From assembly GCA_015065005.1 (NCBI GenBank), contig SVRE01000007.1:1-47358 (forward strand): a stretch of DNA of 47,358 bases, read 5' to 3'. Source of the DNA: Oscillospiraceae bacterium (GTDB taxonomy: Bacteria > Bacillota > Clostridia > Oscillospirales > CAG-272). The notes under the pieces were generated by a model that did not search any database, had not been told where the DNA came from, and saw nothing but the letters and a program-made list of their open reading frames with translations. Position 1 is the first letter of the stretch. Each line of letters starts with the position of its first letter. The position numbers and the translations under genes were made by a program. Positions 32,943 to 47,280 of the stretch are shown in pieces.

Positions 32943-33027
32943 ATGAAGGTATTTATATCAGTAAAACTAAAAATCCCATTGGTGAGCTTGTTAGCAATAC
33001 CAATGAGATTTTGAAAAAGTATAATTA
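32943..33027 (+). pseudogene. frameshifted micro-ORF remnant (about 28 codons)
   Basis: A good RBS (AAAAAGGAG) precedes the ATG at 32943, but the ATG frame gives only a 23-codon peptide ending at 33015. One base off, an open frame reads GIYISKTKNPIGELVSNT, then NEILKKYN and a TAG at 33025-33027. A single lost base near codon 2 would explain this. It may be the relic of a small element-encoded protein. The family is not recognised. Confidence 0.4.
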
Positions 33028-33039
33028 GTAATTAAAAAA

Positions 33040-33267
33040 TCACTCTGCTATTAGGTCTTGTATTATATTTTCGAAATGGATGCTGTTTAAATTTGTATTA
33101 TTGCAGTGATTGACCAACGCTTGTGCTTTGGCTTTATTGTCTGTCAAGTCATTAAAAGCCTTTATTAATTCGTAGGATTTATCATTCGTTTTGATTAATG
33201 CAATACCGTAAAAAATAATTTCATTGTCGGTATAATATGTTGTACTTGTTAATATATATTTCTTCAT
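33040..33267 (-). CDS. small DUF6514-like protein
   Basis: This 75-residue protein begins MKKYILTSTTYYTDNEIIFY and continues with YGIALIK and a C-terminal HFENIIQDLIAE. The layout resembles the small DUF6514 proteins of clostridial genomes, whose function is unknown. It lies 20 bp downstream of the helix-turn-helix gene on the same strand and is probably cotranscribed with it. No RBS stronger than an A-rich AGTAAAAA stretch is visible. Confidence 0.5.
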   Translation of the reverse strand: MKKYILTSTTYYTDNEIIFYGIALIKTNDKSYELIKAFNDLTDNKAKAQALVNHCNNTNLNSIHFENIIQDLIAE

Positions 33268-33287
33268 TTTTTACTCTCAAAGTCAAA

Positions 33288-33521
33288 TTATATTAAAGAT
33301 AAATCTTTTCCATAGACGCAAGCGTTCAATTCGCCTACATTGACAGATAAAGAATTGAATATCCGTCTTACAGTTGACCATTTTGGGTCGGCATCACCAA
33401 GCTCAATGTTTTCAAGTGCAGTTACACTCATTTTGCTCAGTTCTGCCAACTCTGCCACGGTCCAATGCTTATGTTCTCTTTTATCTCGAATAAAACGTCC
33501 TATATCACGATAAATCGTCAT
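33288..33521 (-). CDS. XRE-family helix-turn-helix regulator
   Basis: This is a 77-residue DNA-binding protein made of a single HTH_3 domain: IGRFIRDKREHKHWTVAELA then ELSKMSVTALENIELGDADP, with the Q/T-V-A-E-L-A turn characteristic of Cro/CI proteins. AGGAGGTG lies 6-7 bp before the ATG. It is likely the regulator of its own two-gene unit. The neighbouring inverted repeat and IS context suggest it belongs to the accessory island. Confidence 0.82.
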   Translation of the reverse strand: MTIYRDIGRFIRDKREHKHWTVAELAELSKMSVTALENIELGDADPKWSTVRRIFNSLSVNVGELNACVYGKDLSLI

Positions 33522-33860
33522 TTATCAACACCTCCTATCCAAATGATTTTAAGAGGTGTTAAATTGTTTTAAAATCTACCGCACTTGAGAATTGTGACTA
33601 ATTTGTTAAATGTTAACATCCCACATTTAAAAAAGATAAAAAGAACACAATTTTCTTCAAGTTTTTAAAATTTTTCACATTTTCATAGAAAATAAATATG
33701 GACAAAAAATGCCATTGGCATACTGTAAAAACAGTGCCAATGGCATTTTTCATTAATAATGATTTTTTAACGTTGAAAATTAAATATGGGAAACGATTTT
33801 TCGACAAGTGGTTGGAAAACGAGGGGCAAGACGTCATAGTCACCTGCCTTCCCTTGCCTC
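33522..33860. other. gene-free spacer with hairpin and REP-like palindrome
   Basis: No convincing coding region is present. It holds the presumed promoter region of the HTH gene, a very strong hairpin (33705-33750), and a sequence at 33797-33830 (tttttcgacaagtggttgg...) that recurs in variant form at 34561-34594. The recurrence brackets the 180-codon gene at 33861-34403. Confidence 0.6.
33705..33750. terminator. strong hairpin, likely terminator (minus-strand gene 33861-34403)
   Basis: A perfect 16-bp stem (aaaaatgccattggca / tgccaatggcattttt) carries an inner 4-bp stem CTGT/ACAG with an AAAA loop. T runs are present on both strands. It lies 110 bp beyond the stop of the minus-strand gene. 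Confidence 0.7.
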
Positions 33861-34403
33861 TTAAATGTTTATGCGTTTATGATATTTTTTTCCTATTTTA
33901 CAAGAATCTTTATCGTAAAACTCTTTATCAAAAATGTTCATTTCTTCGCCGTATTCAAAGAGATACTGAAAAGTCATAGGATCTGAAAATTTTCTTGCGA
34001 AATGATATAGATTGTAAAAATATTGAATAACATCTTCGTTCATCAAAATTCGATCTACTTCATATTTGAAAAATTTAAACTCTCTATCTGAAATTATTTT
34101 TTGTTTTTTCAAATAACAAATATAAGAAAAATAAGATAATGTTTTATCTACTTGTCTTTCTAATTCTCCACTACCATGAAAATAATCATTATACCACTCT
34201 ATACCGTATTCTATTTTATAAATTATAGAGCTTATATCGTTATCTGTTCTAATTTTTTCTGTTAAATCATTAATGTAATCTGCTCTTTTTAGCTTTGTGG
34301 TTTTATTGTACTGATATAATGAAAAGAATCCACCTACAATTACTGCAATTAAGCCTAAAAAGGCAATAATATCACCTGTGTTAAAAGTATTGTCAAAAAT
34401 CAT
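33861..34403 (-). CDS. membrane-anchored protein of unknown function
   Basis: This 180-residue protein has one N-terminal membrane helix (about residues 11-30, IIAFLGLIAVIVGGFFSLYQ), a short basic segment (TKLKRADYINDL) and a mainly helical soluble part rich in Tyr and Phe. The architecture resembles DUF4760-like single-span proteins, but this is not a firm assignment. The gene lies in the toxin-cassette island and is bracketed by a repeated REP-like sequence. It could be a leftover immunity or accessory gene of a lost cassette; that is inference from position. Confidence 0.55.
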   Translation of the reverse strand: MIFDNTFNTGDIIAFLGLIAVIVGGFFSLYQYNKTTKLKRADYINDLTEKIRTDNDISSIIYKIEYGIEWYNDYFHGSGELERQVDKTLSYFSYICYLKKQKIISDREFKFFKYEVDRILMNEDVIQYFYNLYHFARKFSDPMTFQYLFEYGEEMNIFDKEFYDKDSCKIGKKYHKRINI

Positions 34404-34735
34404 ATCTACCTCCGCAATTTTAATTTATTTGTCGTTTTCGCCATCAGCAAGCATTGTAATTTCATAGCTGCAGGAAAAAAGAGAGATGGTCTGCTTTTAT
34501 CCCTTATCTCCGCGCCTTATTTGATAATCTTTAATAACGAGAGTCAAATCGTAAAAGCGACTTTTTCGGCAAGCGGTTGGGAAACAAGGGGCGAGGGTGG
34601 AGTGTCAGTCAAGACTGACCACCGTCCCCTGTCTTCCCTGTAAAGAGGTTGTCCAAAGGTACAGGTTGGATGTCGTCAAGACAGACCACCGTCCCCTGTC
34701 TTCTCTGTCTTCTTATCTCCCTGTCTTCCTAAACC
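34404..34735. other. gene-free spacer with REP-like palindromes
   Basis: No plausible gene was found. 34561-34594 repeats the sequence at 33797-33830. 34588-34629 is a palindrome (GGGG, GGTGG, GTCAGTC-aa-GACTGAC, CCACC, CCCC). 34674-34713 is a second partial copy, sharing GTCAAGAC-N2-ACCACCGTCCCC and then TGTCTT. Confidence 0.6.
34588..34713. repeat. REP-like palindromic repeats, two copies
   Basis: The first copy is a hairpin with arms GTCAGTC/GACTGAC extended by GGTG/CACC and GGGG/CCCC. The second copy has only the right half. A third copy lies at 36311-36360. Confidence 0.7.
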
Positions 34736-35395
34736 TCATTCATTATCAGCACCGGAATACGTAAATTCCACTTCTTCATATCGTTCTAATTCGTTATCTA
34801 AAGGCACATTAAACCTATCAAAATATTTTGGAATATATCTTTCTGAAAACCATCCTCCTGAATAGGTTAAAATTACTGTCAAATCTTCAAGAGAGTAACT
34901 AATTATTTCGTAAAACGCCTCTATGTATCTTTCGTTTTCAATATATTTAACTTTGTATCCAGAAACATTCTTATGACTTGTTGAACAAAATTTGCTTGAG
35001 CAAAACAAATCAGTAAAACTTTCATCATATGGATTTTTATTCTCCAAAAAACAACTCCCATTCAAAAATATAGTGTTTGTACCCTCTTCCTTAATTCTTT
35101 TCTTAACGTTTGAAATATAGTGTTCCAAATTCTCTATATTATCAAATTTCAGTTCTAAATAAACATCACATTCTTCATTATAGTAAGCATAATAATAAAA
35201 CGACTCTATTTTCGCGGTTAATGGTATTTCTTCTAAAAATAATTTGGAATAAATAGGATATTCTTTGGAATTATAATCTGCAATATCATCAGTATAACGT
35301 ATATCTTCCTCCATAGTTATGGTTAGATATATAGCTACGGAAATTATAAATATTGCAATCAAAGACACAACAGTAACAATTACTTTTCTAGTCAT
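34736..35395 (-). CDS. candidate immunity protein of orphan cassette B, membrane anchored
   Basis: This is a 219-residue protein with one N-terminal membrane helix (about 4-26) and a soluble extracytoplasmic part rich in aromatic residues, including Cys pairs near residues 112 and 131-137. No family was recognised. Its ATG overlaps the stop of the upstream orphan toxin frame by 8 bp, and GGAGGG supplies an RBS, a coupling typical of toxin-immunity pairs. The outward-facing topology suggests that the cognate toxin acts outside the cytoplasmic membrane. Function is inferred from context only. Confidence 0.55.
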   Translation of the reverse strand: MTRKVIVTVVSLIAIFIISVAIYLTITMEEDIRYTDDIADYNSKEYPIYSKLFLEEIPLTAKIESFYYYAYYNEECDVYLELKFDNIENLEHYISNVKKRIKEEGTNTIFLNGSCFLENKNPYDESFTDLFCSSKFCSTSHKNVSGYKVKYIENERYIEAFYEIISYSLEDLTVILTYSGGWFSERYIPKYFDRFNVPLDNELERYEEVEFTYSGADNE

Positions 35396-36143
35396 TCCAA
35401 ATAGCCCTCCAACCTTTTTTGATCATTGTCCAACGAGTTTCATCAATATCAAGATCTGTAGTTTTTGCTGAATCAAAACCAAAAGAATGTGCAAATGCAT
35501 GCCACTGATACTCCCATCTTATGTGTTTAATATCCATTAAATATTCTGTTTTAATTCCATTGAATTCTGCTAATTCTAAGGTTCTTTCATACAATCTTTC
35601 ATAATAGTGATCATATGCTAAAACATCAACATTATCAATGGCATGTTGTGTATCAATGTGTATTTTTATCGTGTCATTTCCATAATTATCTTTAGATTCT
35701 TCCAGTTCAGCCTGCTCTGCAGCAAGTATTGCTTGCTCAATTTGTTCCTGTGTGGGCTCCTGTCTTGTATCACTTCTTAACGTAACGGTGCATCCAACCA
35801 TCATACCAACAAACAATACTATACCAATAGCTATAGGCATATAGCCAGAATTATCAACATACATTATTGGATTGTTGTCACAATATGAATACAAATTTAA
35901 CCCCGCTATACTCACGCCACACGACAATTGTACGTCCGCATTGATAAATCTCTTAACCTGTGGGTCGTAATACCTTGCATTCAGGTAATAGAAGCCTGTT
36001 TCGGTATCGTAATAATAGCCACGGTAACGGAATGGGTTTAAATTACCGATGTTTGCACTTGTATGATTTGTAACAGTATGCTCACCCCAAGCATTATAAG
36101 TGTAACTTGCTACGCAGTTTCCGTTAGTGTCGTATATACCTAA
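35388..36143 (-). CDS. orphan Rhs C-terminal cassette B (core fragment plus toxin-like tip, no proper start)
   Basis: The frame opens after a TAA at 36144-36146, which lies at the junction with the 123-bp element. The first 80 or so residues are Rhs core, with DTNGNCVASYTYNAWGEHTV and FYYLNARYYDPQVKRFINAD. After NNPIMYVDNSG (main gene: DPVG) come a membrane segment and a new C-terminal domain with a Glu-rich linker, ending in IRWEYQWHAFAHSFGF and DLDIDETRW. The only in-frame start is a TTG at 35927 without an RBS, so the cassette is probably silent unless recombined into a full rhs gene. The WE-x2-WH-x2-AHSFG stretch resembles EWELHNVAYAFSSVFG in cassette A. Confidence 0.7.
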   Translation of the reverse strand, partial: LGIYDTNGNCVASYTYNAWGEHTVTNHTSANIGNLNPFRYRGYYYDTETGFYYLNARYYDPQVKRFINADVQLSCGVSIAGLNLYSYCDNNPIMYVDNSGYMPIAIGIVLFVGMMVGCTVTLRSDTRQEPTQEQIEQAILAAEQAELEESKDNYGNDTIKIHIDTQHAIDNVDVLAYDHYYERLYERTLELAEFNGIKTEYLMDIKHIRWEYQWHAFAHSFGFDSAKTTDLDIDETRWTMIKKGWRAIWND

Positions 36144-36151
36144 TTATACCA
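36143..36151 (-). promoter_or_regulatory. extended -10 promoter at element E1 edge
   Basis: The minus strand reads TGGTATAAT here, a perfect extended -10, directed into orphan cassette B. No good -35 is seen. Confidence 0.45.
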
Positions 36152-36276
36152 GAAACCAAACGCAGGGCGTTTGCAACGACATTGTCGTTTGTGGTGCGAA
36201 AGCACCTTTGTTTCGCCGTCAACGGAAATGGCGCAATACCGCACTTGTGGTTTTGGCAAGAGCCATTTCCGTTATA
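36144..36276. repeat. 123-bp multi-hairpin element E1 flanked by TTATA
   Basis: The element proper is 36149-36271, flanked by TTATA at 36144-36148 and 36272-36276. It has four successive stems: CAAACGC/GCGTTTG (36157-36173), AACGAC/GTCGTT (36175-36189), GGTGC-GAAA-GCACC (36193-36206) and AACGGAAATGGC/GCCATTTCCGTT (36221-36273). The last contains an inner hairpin ACCGC/GTGGT. A second copy of equal length is at 37959-38081 with about ten substitutions. To the left it abuts Rhs core. To the right TTATATCACCTT again matches the intact rhs gene, as expected for an insertion inside rhs sequence. Confidence 0.85.
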
Positions 36277-36310
36277 TCACCTTAAAAATTTTTGTGGGTA
36301 AACTTGTCCG

Positions 36311-36360
36311 AGGGGCGAAGGTGGGCGCCAGTCAAGACGCACCACCGTACCCTGTCTTCC
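36311..36360. repeat. REP-like palindromic repeat, third copy
   Basis: GGGGCGAAGGTGG, then CAGTCAAGAC, ACCACCGT and CCCTGTCTTCC match the palindrome at 34588-34638. It lies just beyond the immunity gene of cassette A. Confidence 0.65.
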
Positions 36361-36371
36361 TTATCATTTGT

Positions 36372-37181
36372 TTAGGAACCATCAAAACACATTGAAAAAC
36401 CCTCGAGGTCGAAAATTTGAACCCAATCTACAAAAGTGAAGCTTTCATTTTCAAAATCATATGAGTATACAGTAACTATAAAATCTGGAAACTCACCTGA
36501 TACACATCGAACATAAATTTTATCTTCAACTAATGTTATCCCTCTAATTTCAATTTTCAAAAGATCGTTTAAATATTTCGCTTGTTCAACCTTCAAAAGC
36601 TCTTCTAAGTACTCGTTGTTAATTATTTTTGTTTCTTGCGAATTAATATCGGTTATGCAAAAATCTTTAATTGTTTTAAAAAAATGCGATTTGCGTTTTT
36701 TTATTTCTAATGAATAATACTCTGTATTTCGAAATATCTCACCAAAGTCTGTTGTGTCACATTGTTTATATGTGTCATTCTTAATGCTGTACTTAGTAAT
36801 GTTTTCGTCGTCTTTATATACAATAGTATCATTATCTATCATATAAATATTTGAACAACAAGTTTCAAATATTTTTTCAGAATAAGAGCAGTCATGGTCT
36901 GTTTTGTATACTTCATAATGATTTTTTTCAACTCTAACAGAAAAGTAAATGCTACTTTTTGAAACAAAAAGTATGTCACTGTCCTCTAAAAGTTCTTCTT
37001 CGTAAATTGTGATTTGTTTGTTTTTTGTATAAATATCAATATCTTGAACAACGTAATTGAAGCTTTCGTTCCGTTCAAATTGGCTCAAATATTCTATAGC
37101 CCGCTTTTCTTTCTTAGAGTTGCAAGAGCTCAAACCAATGATTAACAAACAAGTAATAATCCATAAAGCAATTTTTTTCAT
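36372..37181 (-). CDS. candidate immunity lipoprotein of orphan cassette A
   Basis: This is a 269-residue predicted lipoprotein. The signal helix MKKIALWIITCLLIIGLSSC ends in the lipobox LSSC (Cys20), followed by NSKKEKRAIEYL and a beta-rich, aromatic-rich soluble domain. No family was recognised. It starts 10 bp after the stop of cassette A with AGGGG as RBS. Surface anchoring by lipid suggests protection against a toxin acting outside the membrane, as for cassette B. The role is inferred from the pairing. Confidence 0.6.
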   Translation of the reverse strand: MKKIALWIITCLLIIGLSSCNSKKEKRAIEYLSQFERNESFNYVVQDIDIYTKNKQITIYEEELLEDSDILFVSKSSIYFSVRVEKNHYEVYKTDHDCSYSEKIFETCCSNIYMIDNDTIVYKDDENITKYSIKNDTYKQCDTTDFGEIFRNTEYYSLEIKKRKSHFFKTIKDFCITDINSQETKIINNEYLEELLKVEQAKYLNDLLKIEIRGITLVEDKIYVRCVSGEFPDFIVTVYSYDFENESFTFVDWVQIFDLEGFSMCFDGS

Positions 37182-37191
37182 ACGGTTACCC

Positions 37192-37953
37192 CTAATTCAA
37201 ATGCGTAATCACATCGGGGAGCCAAATACACACTCCCTTGCTAAGATACATAGCAAACATTGCATATGATAGAAAACCATGATCGTCTTCAAAAATGGTA
37301 CTACCCAAGTTCACATGCTCGGATTGTCCTTTATATTTTTCTAAGCCAAAAACGCTACTAAATGCGTATGCGACATTATGCAATTCCCATTCAAATTGCA
37401 TTCCAAAAGATGATCCATCGATTATATCTTTAGTGTCTTCCCTAGAATAATTCAAATAGACACTATACCCATACTGCACCCATGGAGTAATTATTTTATA
37501 AGAATTTTCAATTTCGACACTCGACTCTCCATCTTCATTAGTACACACCTTTGCATTAACATTTCCACTTGAAATTTGAACAATGTCATCCATGGTTATA
37601 TCAATCAACACTATTACAATCAAAGCAATTATCCACCATGCTATTTCTCCCGTTGGGTCAACATACATTACAGGATTATTCGAACAATAAGCATATAAAT
37701 TGTAGCTATTCAAATCACCGTTTGCACCAAGATTATTAATATTGTCCGGACTAATAAATCTCTTAACAATAGGATCGTAGTACCTTGCGTTTAAGTAATA
37801 AAATCCGGTTTCTGTATCATAGTAATAACCACGATATCTAAATGGATTTATGTTACCTATATTTGCACTTGTATGATTTGTGACAGTATGCTCACCCCAA
37901 GCGTTATATGTATAGCTTGCAACACAATTTCCGCTTGTGTCGTATATACCTAA
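37192..37953 (-). CDS. orphan Rhs C-terminal cassette A (core fragment plus toxin-like tip, no proper start)
   Basis: The frame opens after a TAA at 37954-37956 at the element junction. About 85 residues of Rhs core follow (DTSGNCVASYTYNAWGEHTV, FYYLNARYYDPIVKRFISPD), then NNPVMYVDPTGEIAWW, a membrane segment (WWIIALIVIVLI) and a new domain. The final part has FEWELHNVAYAFSSVFGLEK and ends in DVITHLN. The first 61 bp after the junction (37892-37952) are identical to the active rhs gene at 39438-39498, while the rest is diverged. The only start is a TTG at 37713 without an RBS. It appears to be a silent donor cassette. Confidence 0.72.
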   Translation of the reverse strand, partial: LGIYDTSGNCVASYTYNAWGEHTVTNHTSANIGNINPFRYRGYYYDTETGFYYLNARYYDPIVKRFISPDNINNLGANGDLNSYNLYAYCSNNPVMYVDPTGEIAWWIIALIVIVLIDITMDDIVQISSGNVNAKVCTNEDGESSVEIENSYKIITPWVQYGYSVYLNYSREDTKDIIDGSSFGMQFEWELHNVAYAFSSVFGLEKYKGQSEHVNLGSTIFEDDHGFLSYAMFAMYLSKGVCIWLPDVITHLN

Positions 37954-37961
37954 TTATACCA
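37953..37961 (-). promoter_or_regulatory. extended -10 promoter at element E2 edge
   Basis: The minus strand reads TGGTATAAT at the element/Rhs junction, directed into cassette A. It is identical to the copy at E1. Confidence 0.45.
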
Positions 37962-38086
37962 GAAACCAAACGCAGTGCGTTTGCAACGACATTGTCGTTT
38001 TCGGTGCGAAAGCACGAACGTTTCGCCGTCAACGGAAATGGCGCAATACCGCACTTTCGGTTTTGTCAAGAGCCATTTCCGTTATA
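37954..38086. repeat. 123-bp multi-hairpin element E2 flanked by TTATA
   Basis: The element proper is 37959-38081, flanked by TTATA at 37954-37958 and 38082-38086. It has the same four-stem architecture and exact length as E1. The inner hairpin changes from ACCGC/GTGGT (E1) to ACCG/CGGT here, which keeps pairing. Its right side runs into the 3' end of the immunity gene of the active rhs tip, with no Rhs homology left. Confidence 0.85.
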
Positions 38087-38118
38087 CATCGGCTTCTGTC
38101 TTTCTGGTTTTTAGAAAA

Positions 38119-38589
38119 TTAATTCTTTCTTAATTTCACTTTTATAGTAGGAAAACATGGACTTGACAAATATTCATGCAATAATAGTTGTCCAAATTCA
38201 TTTGAGTTTGTTTTACATATTTTATAATCACTTTCGTCAACTTCTGGACTAGAAAATCTAAATTCTACTTTGTCTACAAATTCAAAAGAAAAAATTAAAT
38301 TCACAAGACCACTTATTTTCTTCAAATCTTTAGAAATGCTATCAAGCAAAGCCTCGTTATCCATAGTATAAACTATTGGTTCCATAAAGAATTCACAATA
38401 ACGAATCAAAAAATTGTCAGATAATTGAAAACTAATGTCTCTTCTAGTATCTTTAGTAGGTATACTTTCAATAAAGTGTATCGCAAAACCATTGTCAAGA
38501 CAAAATTTAACCATGCAACTGTCTATTTTCGAATTTGTTGCTTGAGAAATATCATTACAAATAATGTTTCCATAAATAAAATTGCTCAT
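38119..38589 (-). CDS. candidate immunity protein of the active Rhs tip
   Basis: This is a 156-residue soluble protein without signal or membrane segment. The ATG at 38589 follows AAAGGAA and lies 10 bp after the rhs stop; a longer frame overlapping rhs lacks a site. No family was recognised. The sequence is mixed alpha/beta with an aromatic- and acid-rich middle. Its placement directly behind a polymorphic toxin end and its lack of export signal suggest that it neutralises a cytoplasmic toxin activity. Confidence 0.62.
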   Translation of the reverse strand: MSNFIYGNIICNDISQATNSKIDSCMVKFCLDNGFAIHFIESIPTKDTRRDISFQLSDNFLIRYCEFFMEPIVYTMDNEALLDSISKDLKKISGLVNLIFSFEFVDKVEFRFSSPEVDESDYKICKTNSNEFGQLLLHEYLSSPCFPTIKVKLRKN

Positions 38590-38599
38590 TTTTTTCCTT

Positions 38600-41500
38600 T
38601 CACCATGGCAATACATATTCTCTGCCGATAGGTTGTCCATTTTGATTTAATGGTGGAGCCATATGAATATGTGGCATATAGGGAACGCCGTCTATTTTAT
38701 GCGTATGCATATAATCAACTCGTGAATACCAATTTCCATTAGAATCATACACCGTATCAGAACGCAATTGATTTGTGCTACTATCATATTGCAAATATCT
38801 CGAATTTGGTGTTGCTCCAGTTTTTGGTGCTTGAATCGAACCTTTTTCAATCGGCTGATTCGAAATGTTATTCAATTGAGATTTAGCTATATCATAGCCA
38901 TAGCTTCCTCCAACAATTACTCCTGCCGTTGTATTAGCTACTACTTCCCAACTTCCTTTTTCTGCAAATTCTTCTAAAGAATTAGAATTGTCAGCAGCAA
39001 TCAATGCAGTCGTACCTAAGGCAACAGAAGAACCTATAAATGCCCCTGCTGCAACTGTAGAAGCAGTCGTTGCTGCAGCCATACCGTTAGCTACCGAAGC
39101 AACTGCCGCAATGCCGGCCGTTGCACCTCCTGCGGTAACTACTACAGCAACAGCACATGCCACTACAATAGCTCCTGCTATTGCCCAATGCCACCAAGCT
39201 TCCCCAACAGGATCCGTTCTATTTACTGGATTATTCCCACAATATGCAAATAGATTTGCTCCATTAACATCACCCGCTAACATTCTGTCATCTGCATTAA
39301 TAAACCTCTTAATTTGTGGGTCGTAATATCTTGCATTTAAGTAATAGAAGCCTGTTTCGGTGTCGAAATAATAGCCTCTATATCTGAATGGGTTAATATT
39401 ACCTATATTGGCAGATGTGTTGTTGGTAACTGTACATTCACCCCAAGCGTTATATGTATAGCTTGCAACACAATTTCCGCTTGTGTCGTATATACCTATT
39501 ATATCACCTTGTAGATTTTTTGTAAAGAGGTAATAGTCAAACACTCCAGATGTATAGGAGCTTGTTCTATATGCCATACCGATAATACTGCCTGATTCGT
39601 CATAAATATACAATATCAGCTTGTTTCCGTATTCTTCACTTAAAATCCTTGTTCCGTCTAAGTGATAGATATGAGTTACACCGTAAATTGTTTTGCTTGT
39701 TCTTATGCCACTGTCATTATAGGTATAGGAGTTAATCCACCATCCATCGTTAGTACTTACAAGATTATTTACATTATCCCATGTGAATTCCAAGCCATTG
39801 TAATATCCCGTTGGATTGCCCATACTGTCATAGGTTATAGTTCCACCATTATAGTTTGTCAGCTGATCTCCCCATTGAGAATTGCCATATGACCAAAGAT
39901 TACTTTCAACAAACGTTGAATCGTATGCATCTCCCAATGTGTAGACAAAGACTATTTCATCCCTAATATTTCCGTTGTTGTCATAAGTGTACAAATACGT
40001 TCTGTTTGTTACGCTGTTATCCTCTCGTACAAGCCTGTCAAGACTGTCATAGGTGTACCTATACAATAGATTATTATTAGCGTCCCTTATTTCCGTTATG
40101 TTTTGGTTTGTTTCGTCATAGGTATACTTAAATGTTTGAGATGACAATGTTCCCGTATCATTTGACACACTTGTTGTATACTGTGAAATTAAAGCAGATG
40201 TAGCATTTGATGATGAGAGATAATTATATGCAGTCACGTTATCTATATTACCGAACTCAACAACCTTATTTGCATATCTTCTAAAATCATCGTATGTGTA
40301 ATTAATTCTATATTTTTCCGCGTTTCCTACATTCACTTCAACACGCTTTAATGAGTTGTCGCTATTATATATAAAATTGTAGTAATTACTAAGCTTGGCA
40401 TAAGCGGATGTACCATACAAATAATCTTGAGAATAATATAAATAACTCAATCTTGACTCTTCATTATAATCATAGCTTACACCAAAGTTATTTTTCATTT
40501 CCTCTGTGTCATATTCTATCATTTTTACAAGTCTGTTAGATATATCATATTTGTAAATGGTGGTTGTTCCGTTTTTACCGTCAACATACTTACACAAATT
40601 TCCATTGGAATCATACTCATAGTTATATACTGTTACAGCTTCACCCGTTGTATACTTGATTTCCGTCACTCTTTCAAGATGATCATATGTATATTCTACG
40701 ATTGTTCCGTTTGCATATGTAACCTTCGTTACCTTTCCGTTATATGCGTTAGTTTCCTGAGATACGATTTGGCTACTGCCTATTGCAACTGACTCTTGAT
40801 TGCCGAATTCATCATATGCAAAATTATATGTTGTTCCGTTTGCTATAATGCTTTCAAGCCGATTGTTTGAGTTATATACATATTGTACCTTGGAGGAATT
40901 TGTAACAGGTTGTGCAGTTGTACTAACCGTTGCAGGCTGTACCATTGTCAAGTTACCTATACTATCATATGTGTAATAATATCCTGTATCATCAGATTCA
41001 ATAACAGATATCAGCTGTCCTGTTGCGTTATCATAAAAGTACTCCGTTGTATTACCCAAAGAATTGGTTTCTGATTTTAAAGCACCAAACAGCTTGCTTG
41101 ATGTAACTGTATCGTACAAATATGTTGTTTTAACGTATTGTGTATCAGCAGCATCATATGTTAGCTCCTCAACAGTTAATCCATAACTATTATATGTATA
41201 TGTGGAAGTGGATTTTAAAACTTGACTTTGACCATATATGTCTTCTATGTACACTTCATCGTCAGTATCAACACTCTCATCGCTATCATATATATTATAT
41301 GAAGGAGCAATAGAATGATTATACCGTTTTTCACTTACAACATTATGATTGCTATCATATTGGTAGGTAGTTTTTGTTTTGTTTGTTATTATGTTGGTTA
41401 CGTCATTTCCTTCATAGGTATAAAATACTACGTCATTTGTCCCCGTTAGTGTAGCCTTTAACTTACCATCATCATTGTATAAGTACCTTATTGTACCACT

Positions 41501-44500
41501 TTTTTTATCACAAGTTAAAGTAATATTATCAAAATACGCAATGCCTATATTATTTGAATATTCACAACGCACCTTTATTTCTTTTATCATAGAATTTGCT
41601 GGTAAAACAAACGTAGCACTCGTAAATTGCCAACCTTCTGATTTTGCACAAAAATCAGCAGATGTACTTATCGTTTCAAATTGCGTGCTTACACTCCTAT
41701 AAGTAATATCTAATACTATGGAAAATTTACTTTTGCCTGTATTCATTGCATCAATTCCTTTTCCAAAGCCAGATATTACGAAAACAACATCTTCACTCGT
41801 TGATCCGCTACCAAATGTCATATCATTTGTAAATCTATCAATAGCTGCTTGTGATGCAGTATATACAGTTTGAGTTGCGGATCTTTTGTATGCTATACTA
41901 CCTGCTATGGCGATTGAATTTCCTATAGAAAGCGTAGAATTGTCAATGCTTGTTCCACTAGGAAGATTCCATTTTCCAAGGTCAGTGCCGATTTCATAGT
42001 TTTCCAAATCCGCATAATTCACATAATTGTATTGAGATACACCGGTTGTCTTAGCAAGCATAATATTATCAACAGATATGCTATCAGAGTCTGTTGCGGA
42101 ACTATTTGCAACAAGATATACTCCCACTGTATAGTTGGTAGCTGTTGTTTCGTCTACATCAAAGGTAAAGCTTGCAAATCCACCACTTCCGGATGCATAT
42201 ACCTCATTTATTGGAATTTCTTCTATAAATGTATTATTGCTTGATATTGCCTTTAAATATATCTGGAAATTAGATGACGAATGTGCGTTTATATCTAAAG
42301 ACAGTGTATAAGTACCCTTTGAAAGCTTGACTGTTTGAGATATAGAAGTTGTTCCATTTGGTGTAGCGTACATATATAATCTAGCATTATCCCATGCAAT
42401 CCCGCTGCTTGTACCACTCAAATATGTATCCCCTGTTATGGTCCAATTAGGTACGCTTGAATCACTTGCTTCGAAATTACCGTTTAAAAGATAATTTGCA
42501 CTGTTTCCATTGATTACAGTCGACATAGCCAAGCTGTTCTTTGCCTTTTCTTGCTCGGCATATTCGCCTGTTACAGCGCCGTATATTTTTGTTCGTGATG
42601 AGTCAGTTGTGTATGTACATAACGTTCGATTGCTTTCATCAAAAGTATATACATTTATTAGATCATCACTTGTATCAAGCACATCATCACTACCAGAGCT
42701 TCGAACCTCCGTGTAGCCTTTATAATATGCAATAGAAATGCTTTGTCCTTGCACTTGGTTCTTTCCATATTCTTTTATTAAGGATATACTATCGTTTACA
42801 TAGCTGTACTCTACAAAATAATCCGATGATGCGTCATATACCTTTATTAGTCTGCCAATTTCGTCGTATTCGTATCGTGCTATTGCATTAACCGTTATAC
42901 CCGCAGATGTATTATCTATATCGCCAACAAAGGCATATAGCATACTTTGTGTAACTGTATCTTCACAATGTAAAAACAGCACCTCTCTCAAATATGCTCC
43001 GCCAATTGCACTGATTTCTCCTGTTGGAGTGCTTGAATACCTTAATAGACATGCTTCTCCGCTTGTTTCGTTTCTTACCAAATATAATCTTCCGCTTCCA
43101 TCATATGCAAGCGTAAGCATTTCTATAGCATTCAATCCGTTTGGAGTAACATTAACTTTTGTTGGTCGTTTGCTTGAATCGAAGGTAAAACTTAGCTTGT
43201 TACCATTTTTGTCGTTAATAGAGGACAAATACCACACTTCTGTATCTTCATTTGATGTAGATGAACTGTACTTTGTGAAAAAACGGACATTATTACTCGT
43301 ATCGCTTATTGTAATGCTATTGGTCTCAACAGTAAGCTTACATTGAAGTCCGTCTTCATCGTAGTAAATATTTTCTTCCTCTTCTTTTTCAGATGGATAA
43401 AATGTGTGTCTTGTTCCATCGCCATCTATCCACACGTAATATGTTGCGTCTATACTCCAAAATTCCGAACCAACATTTATTGTATAATTTTTCTCTATAA
43501 GAATTTCGTTGAGATTTAATTTAAATCCATGTCCCATATAAGATTGTGCTATCACTGCTTGAGTATCGTCACTTATTTCATACGATTCTCCTGCATATGC
43601 TGAATCATACACGATTGTGGGTGCATAAGCAAACAAACTATCTGTTGTTGTTAATGTTGGTGTTGTAAATATTAAATTTCCTGATGCTAAATTTATATTT
43701 CCTGTTCCAGAAATGCCTACACTTTGTGATGCGTATGCCCAATATTCTTCTAATCCACCAACACCTATGTAAGAAATTAACACTATTGGATGACCACCCA
43801 GATGATCGACGGAACAAAATTGAGTTACATAATCACCTTCCATTGCATCTAAAATCAAGGTTCCGCTGTTCATAGAATTCGAATACCATTTTTTCAAAAT
43901 ATTGGAAAACTCCCAATCGTACCATTCGTCGGTAAATTTCACTATATTATAGTCCTCGGGAGTATACTCTCCGTCATTGTATATTCCTATGTAATTTTCG
44001 CCAGCAACAACTGGATGCATTGAAAGTTTCGCTGATGTAACATAAGCATCACTCGGTAAGGCTGGAAGTGTATTTATTTGTATATATGCCCTGTATCCTA
44101 GACCAACACTTAATGTCGTTTCTGTATATGGAGCTTCTTCATTTACGGTGTAATCTTCAATATAACTCTCGTTTACATAAACTGCTGGGTCAATAGTTAC
44201 CGGAAGAGATGTAGTGTCCGCGTTTATCCAATCGGCGCTTGCGGTTACGGTGAGGGTATATTTCCATTTGCTGTTTTGGGTAAGGGTATATTCCACGCTA
44301 TTGCTGTATGCGTTATTTGCATCAAGCATATATGGCGCGGGGATTTTATATACTTGCTCGCCGCTATCGTAGTCGGATAGAAGGATTGCTCCGTTTACAA
44401 GCTCAGCGCTTAACTTATTAAGCTTAAGCTCAAATGAGAAGGTATATGTGTCTTGCTTTTCTTTGACAATAATATTTTCCTTAATATTATTGCCTACGAG

Positions 44501-45094
44501 TATGTATTCTATATCTATTCCGTCATAGATGTTTTCATAAATAGCCTTTGACACAAGGTTATTAAGCACGGACACATCCTCAAACTTACGGCTATTATTG
44601 CTTTGAGGATTTTCGATTTTCACGCTTACCTTGTTTGTGTTTAGGGGAGTAAAATCTATTTTATATCCCCCGTCATTTATACTAACAAGCCCCGAAGAGC
44701 CTGACTTATTTGCAAATTTAATTTCTGATTTGTTGCCGGCGGAATATTCACTTCCGTTTAAAGTGAGAGCATTATCGATATCTACCCATTTTCCGTCTGC
44801 ATCCTTATAGTGTACTGCCTGCGAGTATACAACCGCCTTTGTTGTTCCGTCAGACAGTTTGAAATGCTTAATATTTTCTTCCCTTAATGCTTCGTCCTCT
44901 TCTAATACAATAACATCCTTTGTAGTCGGTTCGCCTTCAATATCAGCATTTGTGCTTACATTATCTGTACTTGTATCGCTTGTTTCTTCGCTAATCACAT
45001 TTGCGAGGGCTGATACAGGTAATGATACTATGAGAATTAATAATGCCATAACGAAAGCCAACATTTTAACTGTCAATTTAACTTCTTGTTTCAT
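38600..45094 (-). CDS. secreted Rhs/YD-repeat polymorphic toxin (WapA-like)
   Basis: This is a 2164-residue cell-surface protein. Order: signal peptide (1 to about 31, cleaved near ALA), N-terminal beta-rich region (about 60-290), DNRLRE-like module (about 295-450), start of the shell with CDGT-like YVWIDGDGTRHTF (about 555), two carbohydrate-binding-like jelly-roll modules (about 870-1015 and 1045-1190), many YD repeats (about 1195-1930), the Rhs-associated core RYRGYYFDTETGFYYLNARY (about 1895-1915), and the cleavage-type boundary NRTDPVGEAWW (about 1960). The variable tip has a hydrophobic Ala/Val-rich stretch (about 1967-2035). The last 70 residues are His-rich (DYMHTHKIDG, PHIHMAPP) and resemble polymorphic toxin type 24 domains. 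AAGGAGAA is the RBS. Confidence 0.92.
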   Translation of the reverse strand: MKQEVKLTVKMLAFVMALLILIVSLPVSALANVISEETSDTSTDNVSTNADIEGEPTTKDVIVLEEDEALREENIKHFKLSDGTTKAVVYSQAVHYKDADGKWVDIDNALTLNGSEYSAGNKSEIKFANKSGSSGLVSINDGGYKIDFTPLNTNKVSVKIENPQSNNSRKFEDVSVLNNLVSKAIYENIYDGIDIEYILVGNNIKENIIVKEKQDTYTFSFELKLNKLSAELVNGAILLSDYDSGEQVYKIPAPYMLDANNAYSNSVEYTLTQNSKWKYTLTVTASADWINADTTSLPVTIDPAVYVNESYIEDYTVNEEAPYTETTLSVGLGYRAYIQINTLPALPSDAYVTSAKLSMHPVVAGENYIGIYNDGEYTPEDYNIVKFTDEWYDWEFSNILKKWYSNSMNSGTLILDAMEGDYVTQFCSVDHLGGHPIVLISYIGVGGLEEYWAYASQSVGISGTGNINLASGNLIFTTPTLTTTDSLFAYAPTIVYDSAYAGESYEISDDTQAVIAQSYMGHGFKLNLNEILIEKNYTINVGSEFWSIDATYYVWIDGDGTRHTFYPSEKEEEENIYYDEDGLQCKLTVETNSITISDTSNNVRFFTKYSSSTSNEDTEVWYLSSINDKNGNKLSFTFDSSKRPTKVNVTPNGLNAIEMLTLAYDGSGRLYLVRNETSGEACLLRYSSTPTGEISAIGGAYLREVLFLHCEDTVTQSMLYAFVGDIDNTSAGITVNAIARYEYDEIGRLIKVYDASSDYFVEYSYVNDSISLIKEYGKNQVQGQSISIAYYKGYTEVRSSGSDDVLDTSDDLINVYTFDESNRTLCTYTTDSSRTKIYGAVTGEYAEQEKAKNSLAMSTVINGNSANYLLNGNFEASDSSVPNWTITGDTYLSGTSSGIAWDNARLYMYATPNGTTSISQTVKLSKGTYTLSLDINAHSSSNFQIYLKAISSNNTFIEEIPINEVYASGSGGFASFTFDVDETTATNYTVGVYLVANSSATDSDSISVDNIMLAKTTGVSQYNYVNYADLENYEIGTDLGKWNLPSGTSIDNSTLSIGNSIAIAGSIAYKRSATQTVYTASQAAIDRFTNDMTFGSGSTSEDVVFVISGFGKGIDAMNTGKSKFSIVLDITYRSVSTQFETISTSADFCAKSEGWQFTSATFVLPANSMIKEIKVRCEYSNNIGIAYFDNITLTCDKKSGTIRYLYNDDGKLKATLTGTNDVVFYTYEGNDVTNIITNKTKTTYQYDSNHNVVSEKRYNHSIAPSYNIYDSDESVDTDDEVYIEDIYGQSQVLKSTSTYTYNSYGLTVEELTYDAADTQYVKTTYLYDTVTSSKLFGALKSETNSLGNTTEYFYDNATGQLISVIESDDTGYYYTYDSIGNLTMVQPATVSTTAQPVTNSSKVQYVYNSNNRLESIIANGTTYNFAYDEFGNQESVAIGSSQIVSQETNAYNGKVTKVTYANGTIVEYTYDHLERVTEIKYTTGEAVTVYNYEYDSNGNLCKYVDGKNGTTTIYKYDISNRLVKMIEYDTEEMKNNFGVSYDYNEESRLSYLYYSQDYLYGTSAYAKLSNYYNFIYNSDNSLKRVEVNVGNAEKYRINYTYDDFRRYANKVVEFGNIDNVTAYNYLSSSNATSALISQYTTSVSNDTGTLSSQTFKYTYDETNQNITEIRDANNNLLYRYTYDSLDRLVREDNSVTNRTYLYTYDNNGNIRDEIVFVYTLGDAYDSTFVESNLWSYGNSQWGDQLTNYNGGTITYDSMGNPTGYYNGLEFTWDNVNNLVSTNDGWWINSYTYNDSGIRTSKTIYGVTHIYHLDGTRILSEEYGNKLILYIYDESGSIIGMAYRTSSYTSGVFDYYLFTKNLQGDIIGIYDTSGNCVASYTYNAWGECTVTNNTSANIGNINPFRYRGYYFDTETGFYYLNARYYDPQIKRFINADDRMLAGDVNGANLFAYCGNNPVNRTDPVGEAWWHWAIAGAIVVACAVAVVVTAGGATAGIAAVASVANGMAAATTASTVAAGAFIGSSVALGTTALIAADNSNSLEEFAEKGSWEVVANTTAGVIVGGSYGYDIAKSQLNNISNQPIEKGSIQAPKTGATPNSRYLQYDSSTNQLRSDTVYDSNGNWYSRVDYMHTHKIDGVPYMPHIHMAPPLNQNGQPIGREYVLPW

Positions 45095-45141
45095 AATAAT
45101 TCTCCTTTTGATTTCTTTATAAAATTTTTGTTTGGTTTGGA

Positions 45142-45171
45142 CATTTGGCTACTACTTAAAGTAGCCAAATG
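45142..45171. other. hairpin between the secreted-protein gene and rhs
   Basis: The stem CATTTGGCTAC / GTAGCCAAATG has an 8-nt loop. It lies 8 bp after the stop of the upstream minus-strand gene and 48 bp before the rhs start. There is no T run on the minus strand, so it may be a weak attenuator or an RNA-stabilising hairpin and not a full terminator. Confidence 0.5.
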
Positions 45172-45179
45172 CCAACAAT

Positions 45180-45605
45180 TTAGTATGTTTTTTCGATTTC
45201 TCTTGTGATAACATCGTCTGCACCACCGCTACCTGAAACAGTATATGTTAATGTAGCCTTGTAGGTACCACCTTCTGTTAATTGAACAGAATGTTCATTA
45301 ATGCAATAATACAATGTTGATCGATCTGTCCAAGAAGCCCCCTCAACCTGTACCCAAGAAGAGCCTGATTGCTTTTCAATCTTAGTGTCTACTACGATGC
45401 TTGTTGTTATTCCTCTATATCCTCTGCAAGTATATGTAATAGTTCCAATACCATTTTCATCAATAATAAAAGTCGCTTCCGCCGTGCTCATATTATTAAA
45501 GTATGGAGTTATGCCACCCTCAGTTGTAGCAAATGCAGACATTGCCAAAGAAACCATTAATATCGCAAGCAACGTAAGAGAAAGTATTCTGTTACGCATT
45601 TTCAT
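45180..45605 (-). CDS. small secreted protein of unknown function
   Basis: This is a 141-residue exported protein. The signal peptide MKMRNRILSLTLLAILMVSL is cleaved around SAFA (about 24-27). The mature part is beta-strand rich (ATFIIDENGIGTITYTCRGY, TYKATLTYTVSGSGGAD), similar to an Ig-like or immunoglobulin-sandwich layout, with two Cys. A strong AAGGAGGTG precedes the ATG. It is the first gene before rhs on the same strand, 85 bp upstream of it. A structural or export-related partner of the Rhs protein is possible but not shown. Confidence 0.7.
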   Translation of the reverse strand: MKMRNRILSLTLLAILMVSLAMSAFATTEGGITPYFNNMSTAEATFIIDENGIGTITYTCRGYRGITTSIVVDTKIEKQSGSSWVQVEGASWTDRSTLYYCINEHSVQLTEGGTYKATLTYTVSGSGGADDVITREIEKTY

Positions 45606-45632
45606 AAATTCACCTCCTTTCTATTCCGTTCT

Positions 45633-45661
45633 CTATAATTAAATAGGGGATTTTTTGTCAA
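45633..45661 (-). promoter_or_regulatory. promoter of the secreted protein and rhs
   Basis: On the minus strand TTGACA (45656-45661) and TTATAG (45633-45638) are 17 bp apart, 28 bp before the ATG at 45605. It is divergent from the sigma-factor promoter. Confidence 0.55.
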
Positions 45662-45722
45662 AATCCTTCAAATTTTGGAAAATATTTTTAATTTTACAAA
45701 TCGTTCACAATTCAAAAACAAG

Positions 45723-45751
45723 TTGACTTGTGAATAATTGTATGATATACT
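45723..45751 (+). promoter_or_regulatory. promoter of the sigma/anti-sigma operon
   Basis: TTGACT (45723-45728) and TATACT (45746-45751) are separated by 17 bp, with TGA directly before the -10 (extended -10). Confidence 0.6.
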
Positions 45752-45780
45752 GTTAAAAAATTTTTAAGGATGTGAAAATA

Positions 45781-46323
45781 ATGCTTCTACTCTATTTAGC
45801 TTTGCTTGAAACAGAAGAGGATCGAGCCAAAATCACCAAAATATATGAAACGTATCTTGATTGGATGCTTAAAATGGCTTATTACTACTTAAAAAATGAA
45901 GATGATGCTGAGGATGCGGTTAACGACGTGTTTTTAAGCAGTATCAGCGGAGGTTGTTCTATTCCAATGGATAACGAGAATGAAACAAAACCGTATCTTT
46001 TTATCTGCATAAGAAACAGTGCATTTCGCATTAAAAAGCTGAAAAGCAAGCACAAAACGGTTAATTTTGATGAATTGTTTAATCTATCATCCAAATACGA
46101 TTTAGAAGATGAAATGATTGAAAAAGAGACAAAGAAAATACTATTAACTTGCATAAATACTTTGCCCCCGATATACAAGGATGTTTTGACTCTTTATGTA
46201 GGTTTTGACAGAACATTAAAGGAAATCGCTAAAGAATTGGTCTTGCCATTTAAAACAGTTGAAACGAGATTTAGGCGCGGAAGGGGCATCTTAAAGGAAA
46301 GGTTTGGTGATGTTGATTTATGA
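45781..46323 (+). CDS. ECF-type RNA polymerase sigma factor
   Basis: This is a 180-residue sigma-70 family protein of group 4 size. Region 2 spans about residues 20-55 (WMLKMAYYYLKNEDDAEDAV, then NDVFL). Region 4 is near the C-terminus (PPIYKDVLTLYV, TLKEIAKELVLPFKTVETRF, RRGRG). The start at 45781 (ATG) has AAGGA 10 bp upstream; an in-frame GTG at 45772 is too close to that site. It overlaps the anti-sigma gene by 4 bp. The divergent neighbour is the secreted protein-rhs unit, a plausible target. Confidence 0.85.
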   Translation: MLLLYLALLETEEDRAKITKIYETYLDWMLKMAYYYLKNEDDAEDAVNDVFLSSISGGCSIPMDNENETKPYLFICIRNSAFRIKKLKSKHKTVNFDELFNLSSKYDLEDEMIEKETKKILLTCINTLPPIYKDVLTLYVGFDRTLKEIAKELVLPFKTVETRFRRGRGILKERFGDVDL

Positions 46324-47048
46324 GTACTGTTGACAATGCAATGCTTAAGGAATGCCTGCTTGAAAGCATTTTAGCTGAAATCAAAGAAATTGAAGCTATG
46401 GAATACCCTAACATAAAAGCAAGCGAAAGCTTTAAAGAAAGAATTAAAAACACCATAAACTCGGGAAAGGCTGCCCAAAAGAAGCATTTTCCAAAAAAAG
46501 TTGCAATTGCTTTTATAGCTGCTGTTATTCTAAGTCTTTCAATAATGTTTACTGTTTCCGCTGAGATACGACAGGCTGTTGCTGACTTTTTTGTCAAAGC
46601 ATATGAAACCTTTACACAGTTTATCATTGTAGAAAACGATGGAGCGGACACAAATACATCTGGCTCTGACATAACACAAGCTCCGATTACATATCCCACC
46701 ACAATAGAAACAGAATATATGCCATCTTATATAAACAAAAACAACTATGTACAACTTGATAAAGTCACAAACAAATACAATATTTGGGCTGCTTGGTCGA
46801 ACGATACTTACATAATTGATTTGGCACAGCAGGTAATTGATAGCAACGACATTATATTAGATACGGAAAACGCATCTTATCAAACCGCATACATAGGAGA
46901 ACAAAAGGTTTATTACGTCTTGAAGAACAACACATACACCATAAAATGGTTGGAGTACGGGTATTCATTCAACATGAGCTGTGATGAAGCTTTGGGTTGG
47001 GATGAAGTAGAAAAAATCGTATTAAGCTTAGAACCTGTTACTGATTGA
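46320..47048 (+). CDS. membrane-anchored anti-sigma-like protein (DUF4367-type C-terminus)
   Basis: This 242-residue protein has a cytoplasmic N-terminus (1 to about 62), one membrane helix (about 63-82, VAIAFIAAVILSLSIMFTVS) and an extracellular domain. The last 100 residues (IWAAWSND through KIVLSLEPV) fit the DUF4367 pattern common in proteins encoded after clostridial ECF sigma genes. The 4-bp overlap with the sigma gene supports a sigma/anti-sigma pair. Its N-terminus lacks a classical zinc anti-sigma motif (HxxxCxxC). Confidence 0.72.
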   Translation: MSTVDNAMLKECLLESILAEIKEIEAMEYPNIKASESFKERIKNTINSGKAAQKKHFPKKVAIAFIAAVILSLSIMFTVSAEIRQAVADFFVKAYETFTQFIIVENDGADTNTSGSDITQAPITYPTTIETEYMPSYINKNNYVQLDKVTNKYNIWAAWSNDTYIIDLAQQVIDSNDIILDTENASYQTAYIGEQKVYYVLKNNTYTIKWLEYGYSFNMSCDEALGWDEVEKIVLSLEPVTD

Positions 47049-47060
47049 TTACAAATTTTC

Positions 47061-47096
47061 AAGGAACTCACCGATAAAATTGTCGGTGAGTTCCTT
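47061..47096. terminator. rho-independent terminator of the sigma operon
   Basis: A perfect 14-bp stem aaggaactcaccga / tcggtgagttcctt with an 8-nt loop lies 12 bp after the stop codon. Confidence 0.85.
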
Positions 47097-47210
47097 TACT
47101 TGGTGCCTTTAAGGCGTGGAAAAAACCCCTAGTTCTACTAGGGGAAAAAGACGCGAGGAACTACAATAAATTCGGGCGAGCTTTACACAAGCCCAAGAGA
47201 AGTTTACAAA

Positions 47211-47277
47211 AATTAAGCCTCCTGATATAAAAGTAGTGGTTTGGCGACCGCATTACTAAAATACAGGAGGATTAATT
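47211..47277 (+). promoter_or_regulatory. RBS-masking stem-loop in the IS200 transposase leader
   Basis: AATTAAgCCTCCTG (47211-47224) pairs with CAGGAGGaTTAATT (47264-47277), so the AGGAGG SD is buried in a 13-bp stem. An inner stem GTAGTG/CATTAC adds stability. IS200 elements are known to limit transposase translation this way. Confidence 0.75.
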
Positions 47278-47280
47278 TTT

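What the first reader, a model, noticed from the sequence alone, without database searches (positions are those of the whole stretch)
34736..45094. Rhs polymorphic toxin locus with two silent, switchable tip cassettes
Seen: a full-length secreted Rhs gene is followed on the same strand by two fragments that each begin at the same codon of the Rhs core (the GIYDT-GN site). Each carries about 80-85 core residues, then a different C-terminal domain, then a small gene with a good RBS. Neither fragment has a usable start, and both have a TAA at the junction. Known: orphan Rhs-CT/immunity cassettes exist in Proteobacterial Rhs and CDI loci. Inference: this is a Gram-positive WapA-type version in which a tip can be replaced by recombination across the shared core.
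Basis: partly seen in the sequence, partly recalled or inferred. Interest (0 to 1): 0.85.

Follow-up and report, generated by a model that had tools for sequence, protein, structure and literature searches.

The report
Rhs toxin with orphan tip cassettes
A gut Clostridia genome carries a large secreted Rhs-type toxin gene followed by two headless spare toxin-tip/immunity pairs, an arrangement already known elsewhere, here with traces of DNA exchange and a small mobile-looking DNA element parked in a promoter-like spot at each spare's start.

Summary
The observation largely holds. A 2164-aa Rhs gene with an immunity-like gene is followed on the same strand by two truncated Rhs-core/tip fragments, each with a downstream gene. 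Orphan Rhs-CT/immunity modules are known, including Gram-positive WapA ones (Streptococcus suis), so the basic arrangement is not new.

New here: (1) The shared start codon and junction TAA are the right end of a 134-nt structured, MITE-like element whose relatives sit at extended -10 boxes (exact TGnTATAAT at the left end in 17 of 21 copies examined). In the orphans it interrupts a promoter-like stretch that is uninterrupted inside the full-length gene. (2) A 61-nt tract is identical between active core and fragment 1, with synonymous sites beyond it saturated: past recombination. (3) In other Clostridia a promoter-like site is written into the Rhs core codons near the same place, its codons conserved at synonymous sites, and many orphans start there.

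Not shown: a tip switch, or silence or expression of the orphans. Only 6 of 54 validation orphan boundaries have a strong promoter-like site, the window's own two score low, and two orphans in a sister species start at the same codon with neither feature.

The parts
38600..45094 (-). Full-length secreted Rhs polymorphic toxin gene, 2164 aa
   Evidence: ORF; RHS_repeat E 1.6e-26; Rhs_assc_core E 1.8e-21, residues 1881-1964; sequence matches to solved Rhs proteins
38600..39214 (-). Active tip (DPVG onwards, 204 aa), Ntox24-like
   Evidence: Ntox24 E 1.6e-4, 22.3 bits against cut-off 24; homologous tip in L019 (active, 49% over 199 aa) and L086 (orphan, 43% over 150 aa)
38119..38589 (-). Immunity-like gene of the active tip, 156 aa
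   Evidence: position and RBS-like GAAAGGAAAA; no family match above cut-off
39498..39526 (-). Promoter-like site inside the core codons of the full-length gene (TTTACA, 17 nt, TGATATAAT)
   Evidence: best of 28 sites in 33800-39700, 11 of 12 matches plus TG (the number of sites is what shuffles give, 27.6); score 15.7, top of the 900 nt of core scanned in its gene; its bin is not above synonymous expectation for the 54 genes together
39438..39498 (-). 61-nt tract of the active core identical to the start of fragment 1 (37892-37952)
   Evidence: permutation P 5e-5 within codon positions; pS 0.80 beyond the tract
37953..38086 (-). MITE-like structured element, copy 1, at the start of fragment 1
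   Evidence: 93% identical to copy 2; fold z -4.95; covarying hairpin; model hit E 8.7e-22 (one of the 8 sequences the model was built from)
37192..37953 (-). Orphan fragment 1: about 100 core codons plus tip CT1
   Evidence: Rhs_assc_core E 1.5e-23; CT1 has no Pfam match, no match at E 0.001 in the 144 other genomes searched, and one weak relative at a contig edge in L067 (30% over 99 aa)
36372..37181 (-). Immunity-like gene 1, 269 aa, lipoprotein-like signal (LSSCNS, by eye)
   Evidence: ORF with RBS-like AGGGGTAA; no family match
36143..36276 (-). MITE-like structured element, copy 2, at the start of fragment 2
   Evidence: fold z -5.05; model hit E 4.9e-21 (one of the 8 model sequences)
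36277..36310 (-). Decayed remnant of Rhs core left of the element in fragment 2
   Evidence: alignment to the active core, shuffle P 0.0015, random windows 0.0042
35388..36143 (-). Orphan fragment 2: about 100 core codons plus tip CT2
   Evidence: Rhs_assc_core E 1.5e-22; no Pfam family above cut-off
34736..35395 (-). Immunity-like gene 2, 219 aa, N-terminal membrane segment (by eye), overlaps the end of CT2
   Evidence: ORF with RBS-like GGAGGGC; no family match

Best explanation
An Rhs polymorphic toxin locus in which older tip/immunity pairs were pushed downstream of the delivery gene by recombination across the shared end of the Rhs core (inferred). The 61-nt tract shared by the active core and fragment 1 (shown), and the lack of any such tract with fragment 2 (shown), fit a stack in which fragment 1 is the more recently exchanged or displaced pair and fragment 2 an older one (inferred). 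The orphans lack a signal peptide and an evident translation start, so the likely present use is expression of the downstream immunity genes, with the tip reading frames kept open as a reserve for recombination (inferred). At the orphan start the core carried an extended -10 promoter-like site. A small structured, mobile-looking element of a family that sits at such -10 boxes now occupies that site in both orphans and leaves its own TGGTATAAT next to the first core codon (the element's position is shown; that the site drives transcription is inferred).
For: Orphan architecture and uniqueness in the assembly. Identical 61-nt tract, pS 0.80 beyond it, permutation P 5e-5; core-fragment 2 longest run 21 nt. 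Of 6 genus loci with an active and an orphan copy, 3 show such runs (window 61, L149 of G011 73, L147 of G023 88 nt). In L020 two cores are identical over 297 nt and the next 300 nt are 37% identical. Tip families shared between active and orphan positions: 10 of 49 homologous pairs among 131 tips. Element family, 21 of 24 matches examined: TGn before the left TATA in 20, exact TGnTATAAT at the left in 17 and at the right in 17, a -35-like hexamer at a suitable spacing in 10 against 10.7% of random positions; 14 of 27 consensus pairs change on both sides with pairing kept. The full gene has the uninterrupted promoter-like site. In other Clostridia a promoter-like site in core codons at +10 accounts for most of a bin with 12 of 54 genes against 1.68 expected under synonymous shuffling, and its codons are conserved (0.80 against 0.41, P 1e-4, 18 loci). 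22 of 80 orphan boundaries have a strong site within 60 nt, 3.9 expected, 2 on the opposite strand; new set 6 of 54, 1.5 expected, P 0.004.
Against: No strain or population data, so no switch was seen. The window's own orphan boundaries score only 7.6 and 7.0, since the element end has an extended -10 but no good -35. The number of promoter-like sites in 33800-39700 is no more than chance (28 against 27.6). The -27 site is not above synonymous expectation across genes (6 observed, 5.45 expected in its bin), so amino acids alone may produce it. In G021 (L146) two orphans start at the same codon with neither element nor promoter-like site (4.7 and 3.7). 58 of 80 discovery and 48 of 54 validation boundaries lack a strong site; at the lower threshold the validation excess is not significant (8 against 4.2, P 0.058); none of the six validation sites is of the +10 kind. 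3 of 6 genus loci with active and orphan copies show no long identical run (16, 21 and 29 nt). The 61-nt tract may be gene conversion without any tip exchange.
Confidence: 0.6

Rival explanations
1. The fragments are decaying remnants of past tip replacements with no function; the common start is an accident of one element insertion copied with the cassette.
For: Fragment 2 has DNSG instead of DPxG and a decayed left flank; G026 keeps only a short remnant of a stub behind the same element; some orphans elsewhere have broken frames. The only two element copies in the assembly are at these two starts, which suggests copying within the locus.
Against: Tip and stub frames are open over 251 and 253 codons. 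pN is below pS in 39 of 39 within-locus pairs that involve a copy with 300 or fewer in-frame residues upstream; some of those are contig-edge or partial genes, and much of the divergence may predate orphanhood.
Confidence: 0.25
2. A programmed switch: tips are exchanged between active and orphan positions at an appreciable rate in a population.
For: 61-nt identical tract in the same reading register; tip families in both positions across genomes.
Against: One short identical block with fragment 1 and at most 21 nt with fragment 2; none of the seven proteins scanned matched a recombinase family and the only inverted repeat listed for 33800-45600 is a weak 72% pair; no alternative arrangement was available to see.
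Confidence: 0.1
3. The orphan units work inside the cell as toxin-antitoxin modules driven by an internal promoter, as reported for Salmonella Rhs P2.
For: Promoter-like site at the boundary in the active gene and core-embedded promoter-like sites in other Clostridia; known precedent PMC7043789 (passages).
Against: No convincing ribosome-binding site or start for the tip was seen by eye in either stub; the element interrupts the site in this genome.
Confidence: 0.15

Closest known systems
Orphan Rhs-CT/RhsI modules of Salmonella and Dickeya; orphan CdiA-CT/CdiI modules (PMC3967940, PMC3150448; passages seen)
   Same: Truncated core plus tip plus immunity gene downstream of a full-length gene, no translation start, shared core homology used for recombination.
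   Different: Signal-peptide-bearing protein of Clostridia; much lower core identity here (70-74% active to orphan, against 95% over 522 bp in Salmonella LT2); element insertion at the orphan starts.
Truncated WapA duplications of Streptococcus suis (PMC12704120; passages seen)
   Same: Gram-positive Rhs gene with downstream truncated copies bearing other tips and immunity genes.
   Different: No WapA N-terminal domains recognised here; that paper's main text does not use the words promoter or recombination (0 occurrences).
Internal P2 promoter of Salmonella rhs main and orphan genes (PMC7043789; passages seen)
   Same: A promoter inside conserved core codons, present in main and orphan copies, upstream of DPxG.
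   Different: In Clostridia the site lies further upstream (GIYD/LLDS codons) and often coincides with the orphan's left edge; independent origin is my inference, not tested.
MITEs and REP-like elements of bacteria (family features recalled)
   Same: Short, non-coding, structured, several copies across related genomes.
   Different: No terminal inverted repeat recognised; copies sit at TGnTATAAT-like boxes with that motif at both ends in most copies; three tandem pairs share one TATAAT.

Membership tests
Rhs polymorphic toxin | RHS/YD repeats and Rhs-associated core | tested here: met
   RHS_repeat 1.6e-26, TIGR03696 1.8e-21
Rhs polymorphic toxin | Variable C-terminal tip after a conserved junction | tested here: met
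   The three tips of the locus are not homologous to each other at E 1e-4; the active tip recurs on other cores
Rhs polymorphic toxin | Toxic tip neutralised by the adjacent gene | not testable with these tools
   Only position, RBS and a sub-cut-off Ntox24 match
WapA (Gram-positive wall-associated Rhs) | N-terminal secretion signal | tested here: inconclusive
   Looks met by eye (MKQEVKLTVKMLAFVMALLILIVSLPVSALA); no signal-peptide program run
WapA (Gram-positive wall-associated Rhs) | WapA wall-binding repeats or DUF6531 | tested here: not met
   Not in the Pfam listing at E up to 1 nor a WapA model in the NCBIfam listing. That these define WapA is partly recalled; PMC12704120 names an NCWB part and DUF6531
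Orphan Rhs-CT/immunity module | Truncated core stub, own tip, following small gene, no translation start or signal | tested here: met
   starts and signals judged by eye
Orphan Rhs-CT/immunity module | Recombination with the main gene | tested here: inconclusive
   61-nt identical tract with fragment 1, none with fragment 2; no rearranged copy seen
Internal Rhs promoter (Salmonella P2 type) | Promoter in core codons of main and orphan genes | tested here: inconclusive
   Strong site in the main gene; orphans have the site interrupted and score 7.6 and 7.0; no transcript data
MITE | Multicopy, short, non-coding | tested here: met
   24 matches in 14 of 96 genomes, 8 of them the model's own sequences; only two copies in this genome
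MITE | Terminal inverted repeats | tested here: not met
   Ends TATAA.. and ..GGTATAAT are not inverted repeats (by eye)
MITE | Target site duplication | tested here: inconclusive
   TATAAT at both ends in most copies and shared by tandem pairs; the only uninterrupted counterpart seen is the full-length gene

The most novel reading that the evidence does not exclude
In many Clostridia an Rhs tip cassette is a self-contained transcription unit: a promoter overlapping the last Rhs-core codons, the core stub, the tip, the immunity gene and a terminator. The promoter is kept at synonymous sites inside the active gene, so an immunity gene stays expressed whichever delivery gene or orphan slot the cassette occupies, and it often marks the cassette edge. 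In this genus a -10-seeking mobile element has settled in that promoter.
Probability: 0.4. Interest if true: 0.75.

Novelty: new variant of a known kind. Interest (0 to 1): 0.55.

Why it matters
How bacteria keep immunity to toxins that they have swapped out is, to my knowledge, an open question. A promoter written into the shared core codons would let any recombined tip carry its own immunity expression, and makes this directly testable with promoter fusions. It would also be a case, outside Proteobacteria, of coding sequence constrained by an embedded promoter. The element family found at -10 boxes is a separate lead: a natural marker of active promoters in uncultured gut bacteria.

Tried and rejected
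Rejected: that the identical start codon proves a cassette excision site; the element explains it here, but L146 shows that the codon can be an edge without the element. Rejected: that every orphan cassette starts at a promoter; the validation set gives 6 of 54. Rejected: that the -27 promoter-like site of this genus is shown to be selected; its bin is not above synonymous expectation, and the five-gene comparison has a change inside the -35 (L148, ACA to GCA). Rejected: a known RNA; no Rfam match at E up to 1 in 33000-47358.

Led nowhere: tip CT1 in relatives (1 of 145 genomes, its own); defence library at E up to 0.1; solved structures for the active tip at E up to 1; structure prediction of CT1 and CT2 (not completed). 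One paper search for the element (MITE, TATAAT, insertion, Clostridium, hairpin, promoter) gave 0 papers. The genome collections hold one genome per species, so no strain comparison was possible.

Selection effects: the +10 site was first seen in orphans, then tested on full or long genes (several from one genome or locus, so not all independent). The 18-gene list was partly chosen by promoter score, so repeats the test with a list defined by amino acids (23 sequences, one per locus kept: 18); there codon identity is 1.0, 0.71, 0.55, 0.89, 0.88 and 0.79 at the six promoter codons. The 22 boundary sites come from 17 loci. The validation stretches (60) were picked by me from the match list, orphans mainly, before scoring and with the criterion written down. 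Dropped rows: L014, L015, L017 and L062 as duplicates of genus loci; identical sequences; three duplicates; 3 of 24 element matches not examined. The 21 element copies are not independent (model sequences, tandem copies, one near-identical pair).
Full report
What is there. The window is a whole contig (G000:C64) of a 2.06-Mb, 83%-complete assembly. On the minus strand a 2164-aa Rhs gene (45094..38600) is followed by an immunity-like gene and by two fragments, each with about 100 Rhs-core codons, a tip of its own and a following gene. These are the only three Rhs cores found in the assembly. The active tip resembles Ntox24 just under its cut-off, and the two orphan tips match no family above cut-off. 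Immunity-like protein 1 looks like a lipoprotein and 2 has an N-terminal membrane segment (by eye).

The shared start is an insertion. Directly left of both fragments lies a 134-nt sequence (37953-38086 and 36143-36276), 93% identical between the two, with no other copy found in the assembly. It folds far better than shuffles (z -4.95 and -5.05). The active gene reads GGTGATATAATAGGTATATAC without interruption. In fragment 2 the element stands after GGTGATATAA, with a decayed stretch of core left of it (shuffle P 0.0015); a third case in G026 of the same genus has a clearer remnant (0 of 2000 shuffles); fragment 1 shows none (P 0.45). The TAA at the junction is part of the element's final TATAAT.

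The element family. A covariance model from 8 copies found 24 matches (the 8 included) in 14 of 96 genomes; 13 of the 14 are among the 29 genomes of this genus. 14 of 27 consensus pairs change on both sides with pairing kept. Of 21 copies examined, all begin with TATA, 20 have TGn before it, and 17 have the exact TGnTATAAT at the left end; 17 have it at the right end. 10 have a -35-like hexamer at a suitable spacing, against 10.7% of random positions. Three tandem pairs overlap by exactly 6 bases, the shared TATAAT. So the family sits at extended -10 boxes. I call it MITE-like; I saw no terminal inverted repeats. Rfam has no match.

Promoter-like sites at the tip boundary. The best promoter-like site of 33800-39700 is the uninterrupted site inside the active gene (39526..39498, 11 of 12 plus TG), though the number of sites in the region is what shuffles give (28 against 27.6). 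It recurs in four other genes of the genus, but over all 54 genes its bin is not above what synonymous shuffling gives (6 against 5.45). In other Clostridia a different site, CTTGACA-N17-TGGTA(A/G)AAT, lies about ten bases after the first base of the GIYD/LLDS block. In that bin 12 of 54 full or long genes have a strong site against 1.68 expected (z 8.6; no other 30-nt bin exceeds 2.5). In a set defined by amino acids, one gene per locus (18), codon identity at the promoter codons averages 0.80 against 0.41 elsewhere (P 1e-4); at the codon that gives the start of TTGACA all 84 same-residue comparisons use the same codon (CTT for leucine, GTT for valine), while GTG of the -10 region is weaker (0.55).

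Orphan boundaries. Of 80 orphan boundaries in the discovery loci, 25 fall within 20 of about 190 profile positions (380-399). 22 have a strong site within 60 nt, against 3.9 expected from random windows of the same loci and 2 on the opposite strand. In L034 the site survives although the reading frame at the boundary is broken. A repeat with a pre-set criterion on further loci of the order gave 6 of 54, against 1.5 expected (P 0.004, five loci); at the lower threshold 8 against 4.2 (P 0.058). None of these six is of the +10 kind. The feature therefore looks real but confined to part of the orphans. The window's own orphan boundaries score 7.6 and 7.0, and two orphans of G021 start at the same codon with neither element nor site (4.7 and 3.7).

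Recombination. The active core and fragment 1 are identical over 61 nt from the second base of the fragment; beyond the first 21 codons their synonymous difference is 0.80 (permutation P 5e-5). Fragment 2 has at most 21 identical nt in a row with the active core. Of six genus loci with an active and an orphan copy, three show runs of 61-88 nt and three do not (16-29 nt); L020, outside the genus, has two cores identical over 297 nt with the following 300 nt only 37% identical. Among 131 tips, 49 homologous pairs were found, 10 of them between an active and an orphan position and none of those within one locus, including the window's active tip with an orphan tip in L086. This supports exchange over evolutionary time, not a switch.

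Literature. Orphan modules, their recombination and their internal promoter are described for Salmonella, and orphan modules for CDI and Dickeya Rhs (PMC3967940; PMC7043789; PMC3150448; passages seen). PMC12704120 (passages) reports truncated WapA duplications in Streptococcus suis. PMC3482391 (passages) describes standalone toxin cassettes. I saw no report of a core-embedded promoter in Gram-positive Rhs in the listings, nor of the element; the library lacks most subscription journals.

Verdict. A real orphan-bearing Rhs locus of a known kind, with signs of past exchange, an element insertion that explains the shared start, and a broader pattern of promoter-like sites at tip-cassette edges that deserves a bench test.

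Noticed in passing
34608-34641, 34675-34708, 36331-36364: REP-like repeats (GACCACCGTCCCCTGTCTTC core, up to 2 mismatches); three of the six copies in the assembly lie between or after the orphan cassettes. GACAGGGG-type repeats also border orphans in L156, L147 and L149 (by eye).
   Followed up: partly
33861-34403: A further small gene with a membrane segment and a good RBS (by eye) after orphan 2, possibly a third orphan immunity gene without a tip; no family match above cut-off.
   Followed up: no
L259, L123, L011 (G026:C15:191000-191138): The same element in a remnant Rhs stub of another species whose 75%-complete assembly has no Rhs core match.
   Followed up: partly
L028, L056 (both Scatousia excrementigallinarum contigs), about 60 nt into the core block: Another core-embedded promoter-like site (TTGACATYAC..TCGTATAAT) at a different place, again next to the orphan edge.
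   Followed up: partly
L020, cores at 7991 and 10515: Two Rhs genes with 297 identical core nt and dissimilar following sequence: a recent tip exchange or duplication.
   Followed up: no
L040, cores at 6408 and 8000: Nearly the same tip (98.6% over 142 aa) twice in one array, behind cores that are 89% identical.
   Followed up: no
45180-45605 and 45772-47048: A small secreted-looking protein upstream of the Rhs gene and, on the other strand, a sigma-factor-like gene followed by a membrane-protein-like gene (by eye).
   Followed up: no
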